From the NCBI GenBank assembly GCA_017635515.1, contig JAGBLH010000163.1, positions 1 to 36,040 of the forward strand: DNA of 36,040 bases. Reading direction: 5' to 3'. Source of the DNA: Selenomonas sp. (GTDB lineage Bacteria; Bacillota; Negativicutes; Selenomonadales; Selenomonadaceae). Shown one piece after another: positions 1,007-35,333 of the stretch. The notes under the pieces are model-generated. The model saw only the letters and a list, made by a program, of their open reading frames with translations. It was not told where the DNA came from and did no database searches. Numbering within the stretch: the first letter of the stretch is position 1; each line of letters begins with the position of its first letter. A program made the translations under genes and the position numbers.

Positions 1007-2527
1007 ATGATAAATGCCGTGATCTATGCACGTTACTCATCCGATAATCAGCGTGAAGAATCAATAGATGCCCAGCTCAGGATATGCCGCAAGCACTGTG
1101 AAGAGCGTGGCTATAACATTGTCCATGAATACATAGATGAAGCTTTTACCGCCACCAATGACCGCCGTCCCGACTACCAGCAGATGATAAAAGATGCCAA
1201 AAAAGGCGGTTTCCAGGTAGTAGTCTTCCACAAGGTAAACAGAAATGCAAGAAACGAATATGACTATTATTTCCACAAGATGCAATTGAATCGTGCCGGA
1301 GTTGCCATAGAATATGCAGGACAGGCTTTCGATGCGCAGACACCGGAAGGACAGCTGATGGAGAACCAGCTTGTAGGCATGGCTGCATACTTTTCCCGCA
1401 ATCTGTCAAAAGAAGTGAAGAAAGGATTAAAGGAAAATGCATTGAAGTGCATTCATAACGGCGGTATCCCGCCTTTAGGATATGATGTAGGTCCTGATAA
1501 AAAATATGTCATAAACGAAGCAGAAGCCCGTACAGTACGCCTTATATTTGATATGTATGTGAACGGAAAAAGTTATACTGAAATCAGCCAGGAGTGCAAT
1601 CGCCGGGGATATAGAACGAAAGCAGGTACGGAACTGAGAAAAACATCCCTATACGATATAATCGGCAACCGAAAATACGCAGGATTCTACGTCTATGGCA
1701 AAACCAAGAGCACACCAAACATGCCAAGGAACAGCCACCTTGAGGATAAGGATATGTATGTCATTGAAAACGGCCTCCCCCCTATTATCAGCATAGAGAC
1801 CTGGCAAAAAGCCTGTGAAAGAAGGTCAGAGAAAAAGAGAAAGAGAGGCAGTTACCGTGCTAAAGCTAATTATCTGCTTGCAGGACTCATAAAATGCGGA
1901 GAATGTGGGAATAAAATGCAAGGAAGCACTTACACAAATGTATTGAAGAACGGAGAAACTGTCAGGCGTTGCTATTATCGCTGTGTCCATTGCAAGGCAA
2001 AGTCTATAAATGGCATATATCTTGAGAAGCAGGTTATAGATATCATACGACAAAACATACTCAACCCGAAAAATGCCATAACTCTTACGGAATCAATCAA
2101 CAAGCAGCTGAAAGAAACATCTACTGATGTCAAGGCAGAGAGTGCATCATTGCAAGCCAAGATAACCTCCCTTGAGCAAGCCAATGACAAATTGATGCAC
2201 CTGTTGGAAACCACCGACATATCCGAATTGCTCATAGCGAGAATCAAAAAGAATTCTGAAAATATAACTTCTGCCAGAGAAAGACTGCAAGAACTGAATG
2301 CTCAATGCCAGGAAGAAATATCAGTAGAACGGATAAAATTCCTCATAAGCGCCTGGAACAATGTGAATGACGATGATGGATTCAGATCCATGATAAACAC
2401 CTTTGTGCGCTCCGTAATCGTTTATGGAGACCATATTGACATTGACATGTTCCTGCCCGTCAACTTAAATGAGTACACATCTGATGAGTTGAAGAAAACA
2501 ATAGAAAAAGAAGATCTGTACGATTAG
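1007..2527 (+). CDS. Large serine recombinase (site-specific integrase/resolvase)
   Basis: This 506-residue protein belongs to the large serine recombinases, which cut and rejoin DNA through a 5' phosphoserine link to integrate or excise phages and islands. The N-terminal resolvase domain (about 1-140) begins with the ARYSSDNQ motif, with Ser11 as the expected nucleophile. A recombinase domain follows (about 150-270), then a zinc-ribbon with two CxxC pairs (about 295-330) and a coiled coil (about 375-440). AAAGGA lies 9 nt before the ATG. The gene ends about 115 nt from the 3' end of ssrA, separated from it by a terminator and an inverted repeat. That position suggests it inserted the segment to its left; the far att site is not in the window. 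Confidence 0.93.
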   Translation: MINAVIYARYSSDNQREESIDAQLRICRKHCEERGYNIVHEYIDEAFTATNDRRPDYQQMIKDAKKGGFQVVVFHKVNRNARNEYDYYFHKMQLNRAGVAIEYAGQAFDAQTPEGQLMENQLVGMAAYFSRNLSKEVKKGLKENALKCIHNGGIPPLGYDVGPDKKYVINEAEARTVRLIFDMYVNGKSYTEISQECNRRGYRTKAGTELRKTSLYDIIGNRKYAGFYVYGKTKSTPNMPRNSHLEDKDMYVIENGLPPIISIETWQKACERRSEKKRKRGSYRAKANYLLAGLIKCGECGNKMQGSTYTNVLKNGETVRRCYYRCVHCKAKSINGIYLEKQVIDIIRQNILNPKNAITLTESINKQLKETSTDVKAESASLQAKITSLEQANDKLMHLLETTDISELLIARIKKNSENITSARERLQELNAQCQEEISVERIKFLISAWNNVNDDDGFRSMINTFVRSVIVYGDHIDIDMFLPVNLNEYTSDELKKTIEKEDLYD

Positions 2528-6572: not shown

Positions 6573-6581
6573 TGGTATAAT
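6573..6581 (+). promoter_or_regulatory. Extended -10 promoter of the ppx-like/ppk operon
   Basis: TGGTATAAT is a perfect extended -10 element located 32 nt upstream of the ATG of the ppx-like gene. No -35 hexamer of quality is seen at the usual distance, which extended -10 promoters tolerate. Confidence 0.65.
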
Positions 6582-6613
6582 AACCCTATCAACATTAGAA
6601 AGGCGGGAGATTC

Positions 6614-8134
6614 ATGGCAGGCAAAAAGCTCTTTGGCATAATATATATGTCCACCACCAGACTGGAGCTCATGATCGTGAACCTCAAGACACACGAACTC
6701 ATCGAGCGGGTGACCTCGGCCAATTTTGTGCAGACTGCGGACAAGTCGGGAATCTATCAAAATGAGATGGCAAAGATTGTCTTTTCCCTCACGGGCTTCC
6801 TGCAGCTCATGGCAGACTACGGGGTGAAATCCTACAAGTTCTGGGCCAGCCAGCAGCTTATCAACGATGTGAGTGCCAGGTACTTGTCTGAACAGATACT
6901 GCTGCGCTCCGGCATCAAGGTGAACTGGCTCAACACCAGCCAGATCAACTATTTCCGCGCCCTCTCCCTCATGGGGCATACCAAGGCCTTCAACAGCTTT
7001 GCAGGGCGCACTGTGTATCTCCTATACATGGGCTCTGCGGCGGTGACCCTCTTCAAGTTCAGCCAGGAAGAATTCGTCCAGGCCTGGAACATCAGCCTGG
7101 GCTATCTGGAACTCGACCAGCTCGCCCAGGCTCTCAGGAACTCTGCCAACGATCCCAATGAGGTGCTGGACGACTATATCTCCAGCAAACTTGACTACCT
7201 GAAGTCCGAGCTGGAGGGAGGTGAGCCCAATACTTGCCTGATCTTGCAGGACTTTGCCGCCCTCAACAGCCTTTACCTGCCCCTGAACCAGCGGCTGACA
7301 GAGCTACCCTACGCCATTTTCAGCCAGGAGCTCAAGCAGGCAGGCGAGGCTTCCAGCCAATACCTCTGCGAGCACTATCAGGTAGAGGAAAGCCTTTCGG
7401 GACGCATCCTGCCTGGCTTCTTGATTGCCAGAAGGCTCCTTAGCTACACCGGGGCTCAGCAGCTCTACCTCACCCGGCTCAACATCATGGACGGGCTGGC
7501 CATCCAGACGGGGGCTGACTTTGGCTTCACCCACAAGGACTACGGCCTCATCACCCAGACCTCGGCGGAAAATATCGCCCAGCTCTACATCAGAGAAGAG
7601 GCCCACCGCAAGCTGGTACGGAAATTTGCCCTGCATATCTTCGACCAGCTCAGGAAGCTGCACCGACTGGGCAGCCGTGAGCGGCTGCTGCTGAGCATCG
7701 CCGCCACCATCTGCGACATCGGCAATGCCATCAGCCAGCACAACCATTACCATCACAGCGCTTATATCATGGAGGCCAATCCTCTCATCGGCCTGTCGGA
7801 TCAGGAAAATACCGTAGTCTCGGAAATTGCCCGCTACCACAGCACAGCCTCCCCGGAAGCTGGCCAACTCCACTTCCACAGCCTGGCCCCGGAACTGCAG
7901 ATGACCGTTGCCAAGCTGGTGGCCATCCTGCGTCTGGCAGATGCGCTGGACGACTCACATCAGCAAAAAATCGAGAAGCTGACCGTCTCCCTGAAAAACG
8001 ACAAATTGACCATCACCGCCTATTCACCTCAGGACCTTTCTCTGGAGAAATGGGCCTTCAACCGCAAATCCAGGCTCTTCAATGAGCTTTACGGCATCAA
8101 GCCCAGCTTGAAGCAGAGGAGGACTGACGCATGA
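6614..8134 (+). CDS. Ppx/GppA-like protein with C-terminal HD domain, active-site motifs degenerate
   Basis: This 506-residue protein has the exopolyphosphatase/GppA architecture: two actin-like (ASKHA) halves (about 1-300), then an HD domain (about 310-500). Normal members begin with a phosphate loop like DxGSNS and carry a DxGGGS loop and a catalytic Glu. Here the first reads FGIIYMSTTRLEL, the second YLLYMGSAAVTLF near residue 137, and the usual E-E pair is replaced by NTSQINYF. The HD part is better kept (CDIGNAISQ, HYHHSAYIM, IARYHS), but the first His is Cys. It overlaps ppk by ATGA, so it is translationally coupled. I infer a non-hydrolysing sensor or regulator of Ppk or polyphosphate; an unusual active enzyme cannot be excluded. 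Confidence 0.85.
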   Translation: MAGKKLFGIIYMSTTRLELMIVNLKTHELIERVTSANFVQTADKSGIYQNEMAKIVFSLTGFLQLMADYGVKSYKFWASQQLINDVSARYLSEQILLRSGIKVNWLNTSQINYFRALSLMGHTKAFNSFAGRTVYLLYMGSAAVTLFKFSQEEFVQAWNISLGYLELDQLAQALRNSANDPNEVLDDYISSKLDYLKSELEGGEPNTCLILQDFAALNSLYLPLNQRLTELPYAIFSQELKQAGEASSQYLCEHYQVEESLSGRILPGFLIARRLLSYTGAQQLYLTRLNIMDGLAIQTGADFGFTHKDYGLITQTSAENIAQLYIREEAHRKLVRKFALHIFDQLRKLHRLGSRERLLLSIAATICDIGNAISQHNHYHHSAYIMEANPLIGLSDQENTVVSEIARYHSTASPEAGQLHFHSLAPELQMTVAKLVAILRLADALDDSHQQKIEKLTVSLKNDKLTITAYSPQDLSLEKWAFNRKSRLFNELYGIKPSLKQRRTDA

Positions 8135-10308
8135 CTAAAGTCAAAAGCAAGATAGATTTCAAGAATACCGCCTACTATACCAATCGCGAGCTCAGCTGGC
8201 TGGACTTCAATGACCGGGTGCTGGAAGAAGCCAGAGATACGGAAAATCCCCTGCTGGAGCGGCTGAACTTTTTGGGCATTTCCCAGAGCAATGTGGACGA
8301 ATTCTTCATGGTGAGGGTAGCCTCTCTCATCAAATTAGATGCGGTGAATATAGATTCACTTGACCTAGCTGGCCTCACCCCCATCGACCAAATCAAGGAA
8401 ATAAACATCCGTGAGCATCAGGCGGTGGAGAAACGCTACTCCACCTACAACCGCTCCCTTCTGCCCCAGCTGGCCAAGGAAAATATCCATATCCTCAAGA
8501 TCAGTGACCTGTCCGAGCATCAGTATGAATTTTTGCGCCGCTATTACAATGACGAGCTTTACCCTGTGCTGACTCCCATGGCAGACGATTCCTCCCGCCC
8601 CTTCCCCTTCCTGCAGAACAACTCCCTGAACATCGCCCTGCACCTGACGGACGAAGAAAGCGGCGCCTCTGCCTTTGCCACTCTCAGGGTGCCTGACCTC
8701 TTCCCCCGCTTCCTGCGGCTGCCGGATGCGCCCAACGATTTCATCCTGCTGGAAGATATCATCCGCGAATTCTTCACCAGCCTTTTCCACGGCTATCAGG
8801 TGGACAATGCCAGCGCCTATCGTGTTATCCGGGATATGGACCTGGACGTGGCCGAGCAGGACACCTCCGACCTCCTAAGAGCCGTGCAGACCCAATTGCG
8901 GGAGCGGGAACACGGCTCAGTCATGCGGCTGGAAGTTGAGAGCGCCATGGACGAGGAACTGGCCGACCACCTCATCAAGACCTTGCAGGTGCCGGAATCC
9001 ATGGTCTACCGCATCAATGGCCCCATTGACCTCACTTTCCTGAAGAAACTGCCGGGAGCCATCGAGGGCCACGAGGAACTGCGGTACAAGCCATTTTCCA
9101 GCTTCCACCGGCTGCAGCTGCAGATGCCAAAGGTCAAGGAAAGCGCAGAGCTTTCCGTCCACGGCAATATGTTTGATGCCATCCGCCAGCAGGACTTCCT
9201 GCTCCACCATCCCTACGATTCCTTTTCCTCCGTCATCAACTTCATCCATCAGGCCGCCAATGACGAAAAAGTGCTGGCCATCAAGATGACCCTCTACCGA
9301 GTCTCCGCCAGTTCCCCCATCATCCAGTACCTGGGCAAAGCCGCCCAGCACGGCAAGCAGGTGACGGTGCTGGTGGAAGTCAAGGCCCGCTTCGACGAGC
9401 AGAACAATGTGCGCTGGGCCAAGCAGCTGGAAAAGACAGGCTGCCACGTTATCTATGGACTGGTGGGCTTAAAGACCCACTCCAAGGTTGCCCTGGTCAT
9501 CCGCCGGGACGATGACGGCATCCGCCGCTACCTGCATCTGGGCACAGGCAATTACAATGACGTCACCGCCCACTTCTACACGGACATCGGCCTCCTGACC
9601 TGCGACAGGGCCATGGGGGTGGATGCCACCAATATCTTCAATATGCTCTCGGGCTATTCCCGTCCCCCCTATTTCCACAAGCTCCATATCTCCCCGGGCG
9701 GCATCCGCGCCTTTATCTACAAGAAGATAGAAAGGGAGATAGAAGCCGCCCAGAATGGCCGTCCGGCCAAGATACGCATGAAGATGAACTCCCTGTCCGA
9801 TCAGGATATCATTGCCCATCTCTACGAAGCTTCGGCAGCAGGCGTGAAAATCCAGCTTATTGTTCGCGGCATCTGCTGCCTGCGCACTGACATACCTGGG
9901 GTCAGCGACAATATCGAAGTGCATTCAATCGTGGGCAGATTCCTGGAGCACAGCCGCATCTATTACTTCTACAATGAGGGCATGGAAGACATCTACCTTT
10001 CCTCAGCAGACATGATGACCCGCAACCTGAACCGCCGGGTGGAACTCCTCTTCCCCATCCAGCAGGACGACCTCAGGGAACGTCTCTACAAAATCTTCGA
10101 CGATATGTGGGCAGACAATATCAAGGGCAGGGTGCTCAGGGACGATACCTTCGTGCGACAGGACCGCCGTGGCCAGCAGCCCTTCAACTCCCAAGCCCAG
10201 TTCATCGACCAGGCAGAGAGGCACAGTGCCAAGTTACGGAAACTGGAAGAAGAAGCCCGCCAGCAGCCGGAGGTATTCCAGCCACTGACGGGACACCATG
10301 ATGATTGA
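8131..10308 (+). CDS. ppk: Polyphosphate kinase 1
   Basis: This 725-residue enzyme reversibly makes polyphosphate from the gamma-phosphate of ATP. The domains follow PPK1 order: an N-terminal helical domain (NRELSWLDFNDRVLEEA), a head domain (SNVDEFFMVRV, FPFLQNNSLN), and two phospholipase-D-like C-terminal domains. The autophosphorylated His corresponds to His450 in GLKTHSKVAL. The nearby HLGTGNYND (His469) and FLEHSRIYYF (about His607) motifs are intact, as are VEVKARFDEQNN and RNLNRRVELLFP. The start overlaps the stop of the ppx-like gene (ATGA). A GC-rich hairpin follows. The active-site motifs look complete, in contrast to its partner. Confidence 0.98.
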   Translation: MTKVKSKIDFKNTAYYTNRELSWLDFNDRVLEEARDTENPLLERLNFLGISQSNVDEFFMVRVASLIKLDAVNIDSLDLAGLTPIDQIKEINIREHQAVEKRYSTYNRSLLPQLAKENIHILKISDLSEHQYEFLRRYYNDELYPVLTPMADDSSRPFPFLQNNSLNIALHLTDEESGASAFATLRVPDLFPRFLRLPDAPNDFILLEDIIREFFTSLFHGYQVDNASAYRVIRDMDLDVAEQDTSDLLRAVQTQLREREHGSVMRLEVESAMDEELADHLIKTLQVPESMVYRINGPIDLTFLKKLPGAIEGHEELRYKPFSSFHRLQLQMPKVKESAELSVHGNMFDAIRQQDFLLHHPYDSFSSVINFIHQAANDEKVLAIKMTLYRVSASSPIIQYLGKAAQHGKQVTVLVEVKARFDEQNNVRWAKQLEKTGCHVIYGLVGLKTHSKVALVIRRDDDGIRRYLHLGTGNYNDVTAHFYTDIGLLTCDRAMGVDATNIFNMLSGYSRPPYFHKLHISPGGIRAFIYKKIEREIEAAQNGRPAKIRMKMNSLSDQDIIAHLYEASAAGVKIQLIVRGICCLRTDIPGVSDNIEVHSIVGRFLEHSRIYYFYNEGMEDIYLSSADMMTRNLNRRVELLFPIQQDDLRERLYKIFDDMWADNIKGRVLRDDTFVRQDRRGQQPFNSQAQFIDQAERHSAKLRKLEEEARQQPEVFQPLTGHHDD

Positions 10309-10335: not shown

Positions 10336-10368
10336 AGCCCCCGAGGGATTTCAACCCCCCAGGGGGCT
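10336..10368 (+). terminator. Probable terminator after ppk
   Basis: AGCCCCC pairs with GGGGGCT across a 19-nt loop that can pair further (GGG with CCC). The tail is TAAATTATG, so the U-tract is weak and termination may be partial. Confidence 0.5.
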
Positions 10369-29764: not shown

Positions 29765-32014
29765 TTATTTCTTATCGAAAACCCAGCAGTAAGCGGCAAA
29801 GTCCGTGTCAATCTTTTCCACCGTCAGGCCGCTGTACATCAGCTCGTCGCCGTAGAAGCGCTTGCCCTTGATATCCATGGCCGGCTCGCCGCCGAAGTCC
29901 ATGGAGGTGCGCTTGGCGGGCAGGTACTCTGTGATTTCATACTCAGCCTCAGGGTCAAGCTCCGTGAGCTTCAGCAGGCGGATGGGAGCGGCAGGCTCTG
30001 CCAGGGTCTTGAAGTACAGCAGCACCACCTGGCTGCCGTCCTGACTGACGAACTGCCAGGCTGTCTCGTTTTTCGTGCCCGCAAAGGGCGTCATCAGGCG
30101 GTAGAAACTGCCCAACTGCATGGTGGGACGGATTTTCTTGTAGAGCTCAATCTGCTCCTTCACCTCACGGCGTTCTTCCTCCGTGAACTTGGTGATATCC
30201 AGCTCGTAGCCGAAGTCCCCCATCATGGCGCAGAGACCGCGCATCTGCAGGCTGGTGACACGGCCCAGCTGATGGTTGGGCACCACGGAGACGTGGGCGC
30301 CCATGGTAATAGGCGGGAATACCAGGCTGGTGCCGCTCTGGATGGAGAGGCGTTGCACAGCATCCGTGTCATCGCTGGTCCAGGTCTGAGGCATGTAATA
30401 GAGGATGCCCGCGTCAAAGCGCCCGCCGCCGCCGGAGCAGCTTTCAAAGAGCACTTCGGGGAAGGACTGGGTAATGCGCTCCAGCACCTCATAGAGCCCA
30501 AGCACGAAGCGGGTGCGCACCTCTCCCTGACGCTCAGCAGGCAGTTCAGCAGAGAAAGCATCGGTGATATGGCGGTTGAAGTCCCACTTCACATAGTCGA
30601 TGGGATTCTCCCTGAGAATCTTGCTGACGGATTCCACCAGATAATCCCTGACTTCCTGCCTGGCGAGATCCAGCACCAGCTGATGGCGGCTGAAGGTATG
30701 GGGATAATCAGGTGCCTGCAACGCCCAATCCGGGTGTGCGCGGTAGAGGTCGGAGTCCACGCTGACCATTTCCGGCTCGAACCAGAGGCCGAACTTCAGC
30801 CCCCGCTTGTGGGCAGACTCTGCCACCCCCTTGAGACCATTTTTCAGCTTGGACATATTGACCTGCCAGTCACCCAAAGAGGAATTATCATCACTCCTCT
30901 TGCCGAACCAGCCGTCATCCAAGACCAGAAGCTCAATGCCCAGATCCTTGGCAGTCTCTGCCAGATGATCCATCTTCTCATCATCGAAGTCGAAATAGGT
31001 GGCCTCCCAGTTGTTCACCAGAATGGGCCGCAGGGCATCACGGTACTTGCCCCGCACAATGTGATGGCGCACCACTTCGTGGAAGGCCTGGCTCATGCCA
31101 TTGAGGCCCTCTCTGCTGTAGGCCAGCCACGCCTCCGGGGTCTGGAAGCTCTCTTTCGGCTCCAGATGCCAGCAGAAGCCCTGGGGATTGATGCCCCCCA
31201 CCACGCGGGTAGTGCCGAACTGCTCCACCTCGGTCTTGAAGGAGAACTCGCCGCTCCACACCAGGCTGAAACCGTAGACCTCACCGCTGGTCTCCCCCGT
31301 GTCCTTCCTCGCCAGTGCCAGGAAAGGAGACTGCTGGTGGGAGCTTGCTCCTCGGCGGCTGCTACTTTCCTGAATGCCCCGCATAAGGCGCACCCGCTCC
31401 AGGCTGCGCTCTGCCGCATGGCCTCCGTAAAGGGAAAGACGGTCAAAATCATGGTCAGAGAAATCCAGGGCAAAGCTGGCAGCCCCGATAAGATCAAGGG
31501 CTTCGCCACCGATATTGGTCAGTTTGGCATTGCGTGCTACGATAGGCAGTTCGGCAAAAATCGTATAGCTGAGCTCTGCCGCCAGCTTCCCTGCCAAATC
31601 TTTCAGCTTGATAACCAGCGTCTCTGCTTCATGGTCTTCAGCATAAGCGGCAGGAAGCCCCGCAAGAGACGGCTTGCCCTTCTTTATCTCATAGCCTTCA
31701 TAGCGCAGTTCCGTGGTGGTAGTGCCATCGGCGAGGCGCACCTCATAGGCAGGAGTGCGGTAGTCCAGATGGCCGTAAGAGGGATATTCCTGGGGCAGCA
31801 CGTCCAGAGAGAAAGTGCGCTCATTCTCATAGTCCCCAGGCTGGGGAGAGAAAGCCCGGTCAATGGGCTGGAAAGCCCTGCCATCCCTGAATTCACGGAT
31901 GGCCTTGCCCCAGTAACGGTGCAAGAGATACTTGCCCCTCACTACCTGCATGACATAGCTCATGGAGCTGTTCTTCAAATGGAAAAGGCCCGTTTTTTCG
32001 TCAAAAGTTATCAT
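29765..32014 (-). CDS. Alpha-galactosidase, glycoside hydrolase family 36
   Basis: This 749-residue retaining enzyme releases alpha-1,6-galactose from melibiose, raffinose and stachyose. The GH36 domains are the N-terminal beta-supersandwich (about 1-320), the catalytic barrel (about 330-640) and a C-terminal beta domain. The nucleophile is Asp in YVKWDFNRHITD (about 478) and the acid/base is the first Asp of WTSDDTDAV (about 547). LLVLDDGWFGKR and LWFEPEMVS line the site. There is no signal peptide, so it is cytoplasmic. ATG 32014 follows GGAG by 9 nt; GTG 32017 is equally possible. It lies 14 nt after lacZ. No sugar transporter is in the window. Confidence 0.95.
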   Translation of the reverse strand: MITFDEKTGLFHLKNSSMSYVMQVVRGKYLLHRYWGKAIREFRDGRAFQPIDRAFSPQPGDYENERTFSLDVLPQEYPSYGHLDYRTPAYEVRLADGTTTTELRYEGYEIKKGKPSLAGLPAAYAEDHEAETLVIKLKDLAGKLAAELSYTIFAELPIVARNAKLTNIGGEALDLIGAASFALDFSDHDFDRLSLYGGHAAERSLERVRLMRGIQESSSRRGASSHQQSPFLALARKDTGETSGEVYGFSLVWSGEFSFKTEVEQFGTTRVVGGINPQGFCWHLEPKESFQTPEAWLAYSREGLNGMSQAFHEVVRHHIVRGKYRDALRPILVNNWEATYFDFDDEKMDHLAETAKDLGIELLVLDDGWFGKRSDDNSSLGDWQVNMSKLKNGLKGVAESAHKRGLKFGLWFEPEMVSVDSDLYRAHPDWALQAPDYPHTFSRHQLVLDLARQEVRDYLVESVSKILRENPIDYVKWDFNRHITDAFSAELPAERQGEVRTRFVLGLYEVLERITQSFPEVLFESCSGGGGRFDAGILYYMPQTWTSDDTDAVQRLSIQSGTSLVFPPITMGAHVSVVPNHQLGRVTSLQMRGLCAMMGDFGYELDITKFTEEERREVKEQIELYKKIRPTMQLGSFYRLMTPFAGTKNETAWQFVSQDGSQVVLLYFKTLAEPAAPIRLLKLTELDPEAEYEITEYLPAKRTSMDFGGEPAMDIKGKRFYGDELMYSGLTVEKIDTDFAAYCWVFDKK

Positions 32015-32028
32015 CACGGCAACTCCTT

Positions 32029-35000
32029 TCAGATCCCCCGCACCCAGAACTCAAAGTGCTTGTCCTCATTCTTGGGGCGGTACTCCTCCAGCACAGGAGC
32101 ACCCCAGGTGTCATCGCCCCCTACGCCGCACTGGCCCAGGGAAGCCCTGAGATAAGTATGGTGTGCCTGGGGCAGCTCGTAGCTGTGGCGGGCATTTTCC
32201 AGCTCATGGGCCGTATAGGGCAGGGCCGAAGCCTCAAAGGGCTTATCTCCATAGATTTTCAGCCCCCTGCCCCTGTTGTCCAGCACCTCGAACCAGCGAA
32301 TGCCGCCGTGGTTGCCGCACTCCTGGGGCATGAGATAAGGCTCCACCTGCTCAGCCACCGTCTGCTCGTAAATGCCCAGGCGCGCGCCCTGCTGACGGTC
32401 GCAGTAGTTATCCAGCGGGCCGAAGCCGTAAAAACGCAGCTTGTCATAGTCAGCAGGCAAAGTGAGGATAAGGGCAAAGTCAGGCATTTCCGGCAGCCCC
32501 TCTGCGCACTGGTAGTCCATCGCCACCTTGACCGCGCCACCTGCCCTGACTGTGTAGGTGACGATGCAGGAAGATGCAGGCCGGGTGGCCAGCTCATAAG
32601 TGAAGCGCAGGCTCACTTCCTCCGCCTCATACTCCTTCTGTCCCAGCTGGCCGAACCAGTTGAATTCCTGCCAGCTGTCACCTATCATCATTTCCTTCTT
32701 CACACAGCGCTGGTAGAGACTGGCCAGCTTCCACTGAGCCACCTCGAAGTCACGGCGGCTGCCGTAGTCATTGTTGACGGGAGCGCGCCAGAAATTGGGC
32801 TGGGGCATACGGTCGAGAAGTTCCACGCCGTTCACCTTGTAGGAAGTCATATTGCCCTGACCGCTGGAGAAGAGAATCTCAAAGCCCTCTCCCTGCACCC
32901 CCAGCGTGATGTCTCCCCGCACCACTTTGACATTTTTCTCCCCGTCCAAAGGAAGGTGCGACACATAATGGGCAGGCAGGGTCGCAGGTGCCTTGCCTAC
33001 CTCTGCCTGCTGCTGCCACACACCCTGGCCAAAGGCAATCTCATGTCCTGCTTCTGCCCAGGGGCACTCCTCTTTCAGGCAGAGGGAAGCAGTGAGCACA
33101 TACTCGCCAGCACCAAAGTCCGGCAGGTCAAGGGCCACCTGGCCCTCTTCACCCGGCTTGACGGAAGGTGCGGGCATTATCTCTGACCATACCTCCTCGC
33201 CATCCAGCAGCAAGGCAAGCTTCAAATCAAAGGCTGCCGCATCCGTAAAGAGGGACTTGTTGGCAATCGCGACCTCCTGCCTGCCGGGCTGCAGGGTGAA
33301 ATTCTGGTAGTTGAACTTCACTTCCTGCAGCTTGGTGGTGGGACGGCGGTCAGCGAAGTAGATGCCATCGCCGCTGAAGTCGTAATCCGTGGGCCTGTCG
33401 CCAAAGTCACCGCCATAGCCCAGGGCTTCCTTGCCATACCTGTCCTTGTGCCAGAGGGCCTGATCCACGAAATCCCAGATAAAGCCTCCCTGATACAGCG
33501 GCTCCATCTCCGTAAGCTCCGTATACTTGTGCATGCCGCCGTTGCTGTTGCCCATGGAATGGGTGTACTCACAGCAGAGGAAGGGCTTGTCACGGTGCTC
33601 AGCGAGGAATTTCTTGATATCTGCCACCTTGGTGTACATCTGGCTTTCCATATCGCTGGTGCCATTGTAGCGGCGGTCCCAGAAGATGCTCTCATAGTGC
33701 ACCAGGCGGGATGGGTCACGATGACGGAAATACTCGCTCATCTCATAGACATCCCTGCCACCGCAGGATTCGTTGCCACAAGACCAGATGATGATGCTGG
33801 CGTGGTTCTTGTCACGCTCCAGCATGGACTTGGCCCTGTCCAGGATGATTTCCAGCCATTCCTCATGGTCATTGGGCAGGGTGTACTCATCTTGCGCCAG
33901 CTGCCCATTTTTCTGCCAGGTGCCATGGGTTTCCAGATTCGTCTCATCAATGACATAGAGGCCATAGCGGTCACAGAGCTTATAGATGTAGCTGGAATTG
34001 GGATAGTGGGAGCAGCGCAGGGCATTGATATTGTGCCGCTTCATGGCGATGATATCCTGCTCAAAGGAAGCCTGCTCCATGGCCCGGCCCCGATAGCAGT
34101 CAAACTCATGGCGGTTGGTGCCCTTGAAGACGATGCGCTTGCCGTTGAGCTTCATCAGCTTGTCCTGAGGGTCGAGCTTGAACTCCCTGATGCCGATTTC
34201 CTGGGGCACCACTTCCTGCAGGTTCCCTTCTCCGTCATAGACATAGAGGACAGCCTTGTAGAGATGCGGCGCCTCGGCGCTCCAAAGCCTGGCCCCTGCC
34301 ACAGAGAACTTCAGCTCAGTCTCCTCACTGCCGGACAGTTCCTGTTTCTCCTGAGCTACAAGCTCGCCATCGGGAGCAAAAAGCTTCACCTGCCAGGACT
34401 TGGCTGCTGCCGTATTCCACTTCACCTTAAGCCCGATTTCCCCGTCCTGATAATCATGGACAGGCACAGCCTTCACCTCAAGATCCTCGATATGGACTGC
34501 AGGCTTGGTATAGAGCAGCACTTCCCGGAAAATGCCGGAGAAGCGCCAGAAATCCTGGTCCTCAATCCAGCTACCGGAGGTGAAGCGATAGACCTGCAGA
34601 GCCAGCTTGTTCTCCCCCTGCACCAGATACGGGGTCAGGTCAAAGTCTGCGGGAGTGAAGCTGTCCTCGCTATAGCCCACATAGTGTCCGTTCAGCCATA
34701 CAGCCACCCCGGACTCAGTGCCCTGCAGGGAAATGTAAGCGTTTTCCCAATTGGCCGGCAAAGAGAAATACTTGACATAGGAACCTACGGGGTTTTCCCG
34801 CTCGGGAATCTCACCGGGCCTTACCACCTCATGGCCGTCCCAGGGATAGGTCTGGTTGGTGTACTGGGGGCGGCCATAGCCCTCCAGCTGCCAGTGAGCC
34901 GGCACCCTGATGGTGTCCCAGGCGCGGCAGTCATAGCTCTCTGCCTCGAAGCCCACAGGCCGCAGGGCAGGGTTCTTGGCATGGTGGAAGTACCAGAGAC

Positions 35001-35148
35001 CGTCCAGGCTGCGGCAAAAGCCGGAAACGCCCTTGGCCATTTCTCCTTCCGTGCAGAAATACTCATTGTCGCTGTGAGCTGCCAGGCGGTTTTCCTGAAA
35101 GAAGCCCGGGTCAGCCAGCTTTTCCAAAGTGAAGTTAGCAGTAGCCAT
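32029..35148 (-). CDS. lacZ: Beta-galactosidase, glycoside hydrolase family 2
   Basis: This 1039-residue enzyme hydrolyses lactose and is of the large LacZ type (E. coli 1024). The sequence shows a sugar-binding jelly-roll (RAWDTIRVPAHWQLEGYGRP), immunoglobulin-like domains, a TIM barrel and a C-terminal small-chain domain. The acid/base Glu is in WSCGNESCG (about 460) and the nucleophile in CCEYTHSMGNSNG (about 526). NRHEFDCYRGRAM and LRCSHYPNSS are typical. ATG 35148 is chosen because GGAGG lies 8 nt upstream; the frame remains open to 35238. It is cytoplasmic and heads an operon with the alpha-galactosidase. A cre-like operator lies in the leader. Confidence 0.97.
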   Translation of the reverse strand: MATANFTLEKLADPGFFQENRLAAHSDNEYFCTEGEMAKGVSGFCRSLDGLWYFHHAKNPALRPVGFEAESYDCRAWDTIRVPAHWQLEGYGRPQYTNQTYPWDGHEVVRPGEIPERENPVGSYVKYFSLPANWENAYISLQGTESGVAVWLNGHYVGYSEDSFTPADFDLTPYLVQGENKLALQVYRFTSGSWIEDQDFWRFSGIFREVLLYTKPAVHIEDLEVKAVPVHDYQDGEIGLKVKWNTAAAKSWQVKLFAPDGELVAQEKQELSGSEETELKFSVAGARLWSAEAPHLYKAVLYVYDGEGNLQEVVPQEIGIREFKLDPQDKLMKLNGKRIVFKGTNRHEFDCYRGRAMEQASFEQDIIAMKRHNINALRCSHYPNSSYIYKLCDRYGLYVIDETNLETHGTWQKNGQLAQDEYTLPNDHEEWLEIILDRAKSMLERDKNHASIIIWSCGNESCGGRDVYEMSEYFRHRDPSRLVHYESIFWDRRYNGTSDMESQMYTKVADIKKFLAEHRDKPFLCCEYTHSMGNSNGGMHKYTELTEMEPLYQGGFIWDFVDQALWHKDRYGKEALGYGGDFGDRPTDYDFSGDGIYFADRRPTTKLQEVKFNYQNFTLQPGRQEVAIANKSLFTDAAAFDLKLALLLDGEEVWSEIMPAPSVKPGEEGQVALDLPDFGAGEYVLTASLCLKEECPWAEAGHEIAFGQGVWQQQAEVGKAPATLPAHYVSHLPLDGEKNVKVVRGDITLGVQGEGFEILFSSGQGNMTSYKVNGVELLDRMPQPNFWRAPVNNDYGSRRDFEVAQWKLASLYQRCVKKEMMIGDSWQEFNWFGQLGQKEYEAEEVSLRFTYELATRPASSCIVTYTVRAGGAVKVAMDYQCAEGLPEMPDFALILTLPADYDKLRFYGFGPLDNYCDRQQGARLGIYEQTVAEQVEPYLMPQECGNHGGIRWFEVLDNRGRGLKIYGDKPFEASALPYTAHELENARHSYELPQAHHTYLRASLGQCGVGGDDTWGAPVLEEYRPKNEDKHFEFWVRGI

Positions 35149-35178
35149 GCTCCATACCTCCAGATAAAAGCGAGTAAC

Positions 35179-35192
35179 TGTAAACGTTTTCT
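35179..35192. promoter_or_regulatory. cre-like / LacI-family operator before lacZ
   Basis: TGTAAACGTTTTCT matches the catabolite-responsive element (TGWNANCGNTNWCA) at all but the last position and has the central AAACGTTT symmetry of LacI-family sites. It lies just after the expected transcription start, a position for repression by roadblock, as by CcpA or a local LacI-type protein. Confidence 0.7.
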
Positions 35193-35205
35193 TTATACAA
35201 ATCAC

Positions 35206-35234
35206 ATTGTACCGTAAGAAACAATAAAAAGCAA
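35206..35234 (-). promoter_or_regulatory. Promoter of the lacZ operon
   Basis: On the minus strand TTGCTT (35229-35234) and TACAAT (35206-35211) are 17 nt apart, predicting a start near 35199 and a leader of about 50 nt that holds the cre-like site. Confidence 0.65.
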
Positions 35235-35333
35235 GCATTTTTTACGGCTTCTTTAATCCAAATTTGCCCCAATCATAATGCCGCTCCCCATCCAGGCATT
35301 CCTTCATTCAGGGACACTTTCCTCAGCCTCTTT

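What the first reader, a model, noticed from the sequence alone, without database searches (positions are those of the whole stretch)
6614..8134. Ppx-like protein with eroded phosphatase motifs, coupled to Ppk
The protein keeps the exopolyphosphatase fold order and HD domain, but the two phosphate-binding loops (normally DxGSNS and DxGGGS) and the catalytic Glu region are replaced. Ppk next door has its motifs intact and overlaps it by 4 nt. This suggests a pseudo-exopolyphosphatase that senses polyphosphate or regulates Ppk, rather than degrading the polymer.
Basis: partly seen in the sequence, partly recalled or inferred. Interest (0 to 1): 0.58.

Follow-up and report, generated by a model that had tools for sequence, protein, structure and literature searches.

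The report
Polyphosphatase look-alike partnering polyphosphate kinase
A rumen Selenomonas carries a protein built like a polyphosphate-degrading enzyme but lacking its catalytic residues, encoded directly before the polyphosphate-making enzyme; a relative in lactic acid bacteria is already known to be needed for polyphosphate synthesis, so this is a further member of a known kind, apparently acquired from those bacteria.

Summary
ORF 6614..8134 has the full four-domain Ppx fold (AlphaFold pLDDT 90.5; E. coli Ppx Z 25.4), but seven of eight active-site residues are replaced and no carboxylate lies near the lost catalytic Glu or loop-2 Asp. Ppk overlaps it by 4 nt and is intact. The gene is under purifying selection (dN/dS about 0.04). 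An eroded Ppx sits directly upstream of ppk in 24 of 24 such loci of the host's family; all 53 named relatives fetched have ppk next to them.

This is the ppk-linked "Ppx1" of Lactobacillaceae. A 2025 review reports that Lc. paracasei Ppx1 is essential for polyphosphate accumulation, describes it as a Ppk1 activator and already lists Negativicutes.

Added here: the operon nests inside Lactobacillaceae (transfer); this Selenomonas lineage lacks ppx2; conservation is inverted (intact long Ppx: 26/308 near-invariant columns in the catalytic half, 3/142 in domain III; Ppx1: 3/298 and 26/142). Best mechanism: a non-catalytic Ppk activator acting through its HD-like C-terminal half. Activation is inferred from the relative, not tested here.

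The parts
6614..8134 (+). ppx1: four-domain Ppx-like protein without the exopolyphosphatase active site (506 aa)
6644..6661 (+). replaced phosphate-binding loop 1 (residues 11-16, YMSTTR in place of DLGSNS)
6860..6862 (+). codon of I83, position of catalytic Arg93 of E. coli Ppx
6929..6952 (+). replaced catalytic-Glu motif (residues 106-113, LNTSQINY)
7025..7048 (+). replaced phosphate-binding loop 2 (residues 138-145, YMGSAAVT in place of DIGGGSTE)
7544..7969 (+). HD-like domain III (residues 311-452), the most conserved part of ppk-linked Ppx1
   Evidence: PF21447 at residues 314-473; conservation
7832..7855 (+). near-invariant signature RYHS...P (residues 407-414)
7910..7969 (+). near-invariant signature AKLxAxLRLADALDDSxQxK (residues 433-452; window letters VAILRLADALDDSHQQK after AKL)
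8131..10308 (+). ppk, polyphosphate kinase 1 (725 aa); R390, R420, H450, D485, R579, H607, E638 present
   Evidence: TIGR03705 887 bits and NF003920 1089 bits; residue mapping; only TIGR03705 match in the own genome
8131..8134 (+). ATGA overlap of the ppx1 stop and the ppk start
6573..6581 (+). possible extended -10 promoter (TGGTATAAT), read by eye; no good -35, not reported by the scan
   Evidence: sequence; scan lists no + strand promoter upstream of the start
6600..6609 (+). ribosome-binding site (AAGGCGGGAG), by eye
   Evidence: sequence
10338..10365 (.). G+C-rich inverted repeat after ppk, likely transcription end of the ppx1-ppk pair (the scan reports it on the - strand)
   Evidence: sequence

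Best explanation
The protein is Ppx1, a non-catalytic partner of the polyphosphate kinase encoded with it. It keeps the exopolyphosphatase fold but cannot hydrolyse polyphosphate, because the metal ligands, the phosphate-binding residues and the catalytic Glu are gone (shown in sequence). It is translated together with Ppk and binds Ppk, or holds the growing polyphosphate chain for it, through its HD-like C-terminal half, so raising Ppk activity; without it the cell should make little or no polyphosphate (inferred: from the published requirement for Ppx1 in Lc. paracasei and from the shift of conservation into domain III). The ppx1-ppk-ppx2 operon entered Selenomonadaceae from Lactobacillaceae, and the lineage of this window then lost ppx2 (trees shown, direction and loss inferred).
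For: Active site lost. Fold kept. Purifying selection. Linkage: ppk directly downstream on the same strand in 24 of 24 eroded loci of the family, the window included, at 53 of 53 named loci of the Ppx1 family, and in 9 of 9 complete eroded long Ppx of a 299-genome phylum sample. Pairing: Ppk-bearing family genomes without Ppx1 carry a different Ppk lineage, with a short Ppx having intact motifs upstream in 19 of 20 loci examined. Nesting in Lactobacillaceae; AU tests 67, 68. Function of the relative: review PMC12248826. Conservation inversion: Fisher p 9e-10 after thinning at 70% identity.
Against: No experiment on this protein. The Lc. paracasei sequence itself was not available, so orthology rests on other Lactobacillaceae. 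Of ten basic residues lining the E. coli Ppx canyon only K192 and H381 are kept, with two swaps that stay basic or nearly so (H380, R484), which speaks against polyphosphate binding in the E. coli manner. Linkage alone is not diagnostic: 2 of 23 intact long Ppx also lie directly before ppk, and so do short ones.
Confidence: 0.75

Rival explanations
1. Negative regulator or sensor: the dead phosphatase fold binds polyphosphate, pppGpp or another nucleotide and restrains Ppk, or gates it, instead of activating it.
For: The Ppx/GppA fold binds ppGpp in GppA structures (titles); linkage and loss of catalysis fit any regulatory role.
Against: The tested relative in Lc. paracasei is required for polyphosphate accumulation. 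The nucleotide and phosphate loops themselves are replaced, whereas constraint has moved to domain III.
Confidence: 0.14
2. Still an exopolyphosphatase, with catalytic residues supplied from shifted positions.
For: Complete fold; one conserved acid near loop 1 (E18); some relatives keep part of the site, up to 4 of 7 residues.
Against: No acid within 8 residues of Y138 or I111; Arg93, Glu121, Asp143 and Glu150 equivalents all gone; four of the five residues whose mutation was studied in P. aeruginosa Ppx are replaced (PMC4631893, passages).
Confidence: 0.05
3. The HD-like domain is itself a metal-dependent phosphohydrolase and that is the real activity.
For: Domain III is the most conserved part, with invariant H378, H381, D443 and D446.
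Against: The His of the H-D dyad is replaced in the window (C367) and in at least 46 of 47 Ppx1 proteins, while 21 of 23 intact long Ppx keep it.
Confidence: 0.04
4. A decaying pseudogene.
For: Motif loss.
Against: Intact reading frames in 14 of 14 Selenomonadaceae loci of this clade, dN/dS about 0.04, replacements themselves conserved.
Confidence: 0.02

Closest known systems
Ppx1 of Lacticaseibacillus paracasei BL23 and other Lactobacillaceae ('Cluster II' Ppx1; Corrales et al. 2024, as told in review PMC12248826)
   Same: Four domains, substituted P-loops and catalytic residues, gene directly before ppk; both trees place the window genes inside Lactobacillaceae. The review already puts Negativicutes proteins in this cluster.
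   Different: Selenomonas host; ppx2 absent after ppk in this lineage; function not tested here. The Lc. paracasei sequence itself was not compared.
E. coli Ppx (exopolyphosphatase, PDB 1u6z)
   Same: Whole fold, domain order, operon with ppk (there ppk comes first).
   Different: Seven of eight active-site residues replaced; most basic canyon residues not kept.
Second eroded Ppx lineage of Selenomonadaceae ('clade II' here, L017, L018, L020-L025)
   Same: Directly before ppk; loop 1 Asp replaced by His.
   Different: 24-28% identical to the window protein; keeps Glu121, Arg93 and loop-2 Asp; at least five of these genomes also hold an intact long Ppx.
Ppx2 / short Ppx (two-domain, Aquifex-type)
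   Same: Same catalytic-half fold.
   Different: Intact motifs, no domains III and IV; active in Lc. paracasei according to the review.

Membership tests
Active Ppx/GppA exopolyphosphatase | Ppx fold over four domains | tested here: met
Active Ppx/GppA exopolyphosphatase | P-loop 1 (DxGSNS) with Asp and Asn | tested here: not met
   Y11, T15
Active Ppx/GppA exopolyphosphatase | Catalytic Glu (E121) and Arg (R93) | tested here: not met
   I111, I83
Active Ppx/GppA exopolyphosphatase | P-loop 2 (DxGGGS) with Asp143, Ser148 and Glu150 | tested here: not met
   Y138, A143, T145
Active Ppx/GppA exopolyphosphatase | Match to Pfam PF02541 (catalytic domains) | tested here: not met
   not listed at E up to 1
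Active Ppx/GppA exopolyphosphatase | Hydrolysis of polyphosphate | not testable with these tools
   needs purified protein
Ppk-linked Ppx1 (Cluster II) | Four domains with substituted P-loops and catalytic residues | tested here: met
Ppk-linked Ppx1 (Cluster II) | Gene directly upstream of ppk | tested here: met
   4-nt overlap
Ppk-linked Ppx1 (Cluster II) | Groups with Lactobacillaceae Ppx1 in a tree | tested here: met
   19-row clade with Limosilactobacillus and Ligilactobacillus, 100/100
Ppk-linked Ppx1 (Cluster II) | Direct orthology to the Lc. paracasei BL23 protein | not tested
   sequence not held by the tools used
Ppk-linked Ppx1 (Cluster II) | Needed for polyphosphate synthesis, stimulates Ppk | not testable with these tools
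   reported for Lc. paracasei
ppx1-ppk-ppx2 operon of Lactobacillaceae | Short ppx2 after ppk | tested here: not met
   absent in the window and in L035, L036, L040; present in 8 of 12 named Selenomonadaceae/Veillonellaceae loci; L034 ends after ppk

The most novel reading that the evidence does not exclude
Exopolyphosphatases next to ppk in Bacillota have been turned, stepwise and in more than one lineage, into kinase activators whose working part is the HD-like domain III and not the old active site; ppx1-ppk then travels between distant families as an obligate kinase-activator cassette, as from Lactobacillaceae into rumen Selenomonadaceae.
Probability: 0.35. Interest if true: 0.55.

Novelty: new member of a known kind. 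Interest (0 to 1): 0.36.

Why it matters
Bacterial polyphosphate synthesis is usually described as a matter for Ppk alone. If Ppx1 is an obligate activator, then in many Bacillota the product of a gene annotated 'exopolyphosphatase' does the opposite of its name, and annotation-based predictions of polyphosphate turnover are wrong there. The review read here says that the way Ppx1 acts on Ppk is unknown; the conservation inversion names a concrete part of the protein (domain III, residues 378-382, 407-414 and 433-452) to test.

Tried and rejected
Shifted catalytic residues: looked for Asp/Glu within 8 residues of each lost position and found none near loop 2 or the Glu motif; E18 lies 7 residues after Y11 and D85 two after I83. 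Polyphosphate binding in the E. coli manner: only 2 of 10 canyon residues kept, so I do not claim it. A second kinase: no PPK2 match in the own genome and a single PPK1. Hydrolytic HD domain: dyad His lost.

Weak points. dN/dS for ppk is invalid (the two reading frames were set off from one another) and is not used. Rows 'H-of-LHE', 'R267' and 'R295' carry guessed labels and are not used. In 12-13 of 47 rows loop 1 reads as a gap because my script cut the protein at a later Met; loop-1 counts leave these out. Dropped before trees: 6 of 53 named loci with broken or partial ppx1 (L047, L052, L076, L082, L085, L086) and 12 near-identical Sporolactobacillus rows. The clade II + III join in both trees was flagged by the tree tool as a possible long-branch artefact, so I do not claim one origin of erosion. 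The review says Cluster I (Bacillales and others) keeps the motifs; the Listeria, Bacillaceae, Geomicrobium and Sporolactobacillus proteins here keep only 3-4 of 7 residues; I do not know which taxa the authors used. For the 20 Ppk loci without Ppx1 I examined 20 of the 30 with a ppk over the cut-off. In one search I did not check that every intact locus had full downstream flank.

Literature. Review PMC12248826: passages and section 2.2 read. PMC4631893, PMC3411833 and PMC11604172: passages. Corrales et al. 2024 is not held; that purified Ppx1 stimulates Ppk in vitro is recalled from its abstract, beyond the review's wording. Searches listed nothing on Selenomonas Ppx1 or on the conservation inversion; that is no proof of absence.

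Full report
WHAT IS THERE. The ORF at 6614..8134 (+) encodes 506 aa and ends in the start codon of ppk (8131..10308), an ATGA overlap. A ribosome-binding site precedes it (by eye), and an inverted repeat follows ppk before an ABC-type peptide transporter operon, so ppx1-ppk looks like a two-gene unit. The nearest named genomes are Selenomonas ruminantium MAGs, 90-94% identical. The host assembly (95% complete) holds one PPK1, no PPK2 and two short Ppx with intact motifs elsewhere.

THE ACTIVE SITE IS GONE, THE FOLD IS NOT. Pfam sees only domain III. An AlphaFold model from 38 own sequences has mean pLDDT 90.5. It matches E. coli Ppx over 471 residues (Z 25.4, rmsd 6.9), a Cytophaga Ppx over domains I/II (Z 28.1, rmsd 2.8, 289 residues) and the C-terminal half of the Yersinia Ppx (Z 20.3, rmsd 3.6, 191 residues). 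Against E. coli Ppx, Asp17, Asn21, Arg93, Glu121, Asp143, Ser148 and Glu150 are replaced by Y, T, I, I, Y, A and T; only Gly145 remains. Residues equivalent to Glu121, Asp143, Gly145, Ser148 and Glu150 were studied by mutagenesis in P. aeruginosa Ppx (PMC4631893, passages; the matching of numbers is mine).

NOT DECAY. dN/dS is about 0.04 in comparisons with L034 and L005, and the replacements are themselves conserved across the 13 Selenomonadaceae proteins aligned.

LINKAGE. In 151 genomes of the family, 26 matched; 24 of these have an eroded long Ppx (three sequence clades of 14, 8 and 2), and all 24 have ppk directly downstream on the same strand (the window is one of them). All 53 named relatives found in genome contigs have ppk next to them. 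In a 299-genome phylum sample, the 9 complete eroded long Ppx all lie directly before ppk, against 2 of 23 distinct intact ones (two of the nine are in the host's family). Fifty-six of the 151 family genomes have Ppk; 32 lack Ppx1. In 20 of those examined, 19 have a short Ppx with intact motifs directly upstream and one has none found; their Ppk form a separate lineage.

ORIGIN. The window Ppx1 and Ppk fall inside Lactobacillaceae: with Limosilactobacillus and Ligilactobacillus at 100/100 in both trees. Holding Lactobacillaceae together without Selenomonads is rejected (Ppk p 5.5e-6; Ppx1 p 1.2e-4). Selenomonad ppx2 groups with that of Ligilactobacillus (97/92). Eight of 12 named Selenomonadaceae/Veillonellaceae loci show the full ppx1-ppk-ppx2 order of Lactobacillaceae; L035, L036, L040 and the window lack ppx2, and L034 ends after ppk. 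The simplest account is transfer of the operon from Lactobacillaceae, followed by loss of ppx2 in the S. ruminantium lineage. The direction is inferred.

GRADED EROSION. Of seven active-site residues (Gly145 left out), 13 Ppx1 proteins keep none, the window among them; Listeria, Bacillaceae, Sporolactobacillus and Geomicrobium keep 3-4 (loop 1 is unread in 12-13 rows). Other Bacillota show further mixtures.

CONSERVATION INVERSION. At similar divergence (mean pairwise identity 0.34 and 0.37 after thinning at 70%), 17 intact long Ppx have 26 of 308 near-invariant columns in domains I/II and 3 of 142 in domain III, whereas 19 Ppx1 have 3 of 298 and 26 of 142 (Fisher p 9e-10; the same trend at four thinning levels). 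Columns are not independent of descent, so the p value is indicative only. Domain III positions near-invariant in Ppx1 include H350, H378, H381, R407-S410, K434, R440, D443, D446, D447 and K452. The HD dyad His is replaced in at least 46 of 47 Ppx1, while 21 of 23 intact long Ppx keep it, which argues against a hydrolytic HD site.

MECHANISM. Shown: loss of the active site, retained fold, purifying selection, invariant linkage, co-inheritance, shift of constraint to domain III. Reported elsewhere: Lc. paracasei without ppx1 does not accumulate polyphosphate; Ppx2 is active in vitro; Cluster II Ppx1, Negativicutes included, may be Ppk1 activators, mechanism unknown (PMC12248826). Inferred: Ppx1 here activates Ppk through its C-terminal half, by binding Ppk or by holding the growing chain. 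Against chain holding in the E. coli manner: most canyon basic residues are missing.

VERDICT.

Noticed in passing
L017, L018, L020-L025 and L019, L026: Two further eroded Ppx clades lie before ppk in the same family (loop 1 HIGS or HIG(G/A)); several of these genomes also hold an intact long Ppx elsewhere or divergently next door (L022, L023, L025).
   Followed up: partly
L047, L076, L085, L086: At the four named loci where ppx1 is broken into pieces, ppk is broken too; L077 has a split ppk with ppx1 whole. No locus shows a broken ppx1 with an intact ppk. Could be co-loss or poor assembly.
   Followed up: no
L177-L180, L182, L184, L185: A group of otherwise intact long Ppx has Lys in place of the metal-binding Glu150 (DLGGGSLK or DVGGGSTK).
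   Followed up: no
L142, L143, L145-L161: A second, native ppx-ppk architecture in the family: short intact Ppx directly before a divergent Ppk; L144 has Ppk without any Ppx found nearby.
   Followed up: partly
window 1007-2527: Large serine recombinase (resolvase, recombinase and zinc ribbon domains) in the AT-richer left end (GC 0.42 against about 0.54), probably the edge of a mobile element.
   Followed up: no
window 29765-32017 and 32029-35238, minus strand: GH36 alpha-galactosidase and LacZ-type beta-galactosidase side by side.
   Followed up: no
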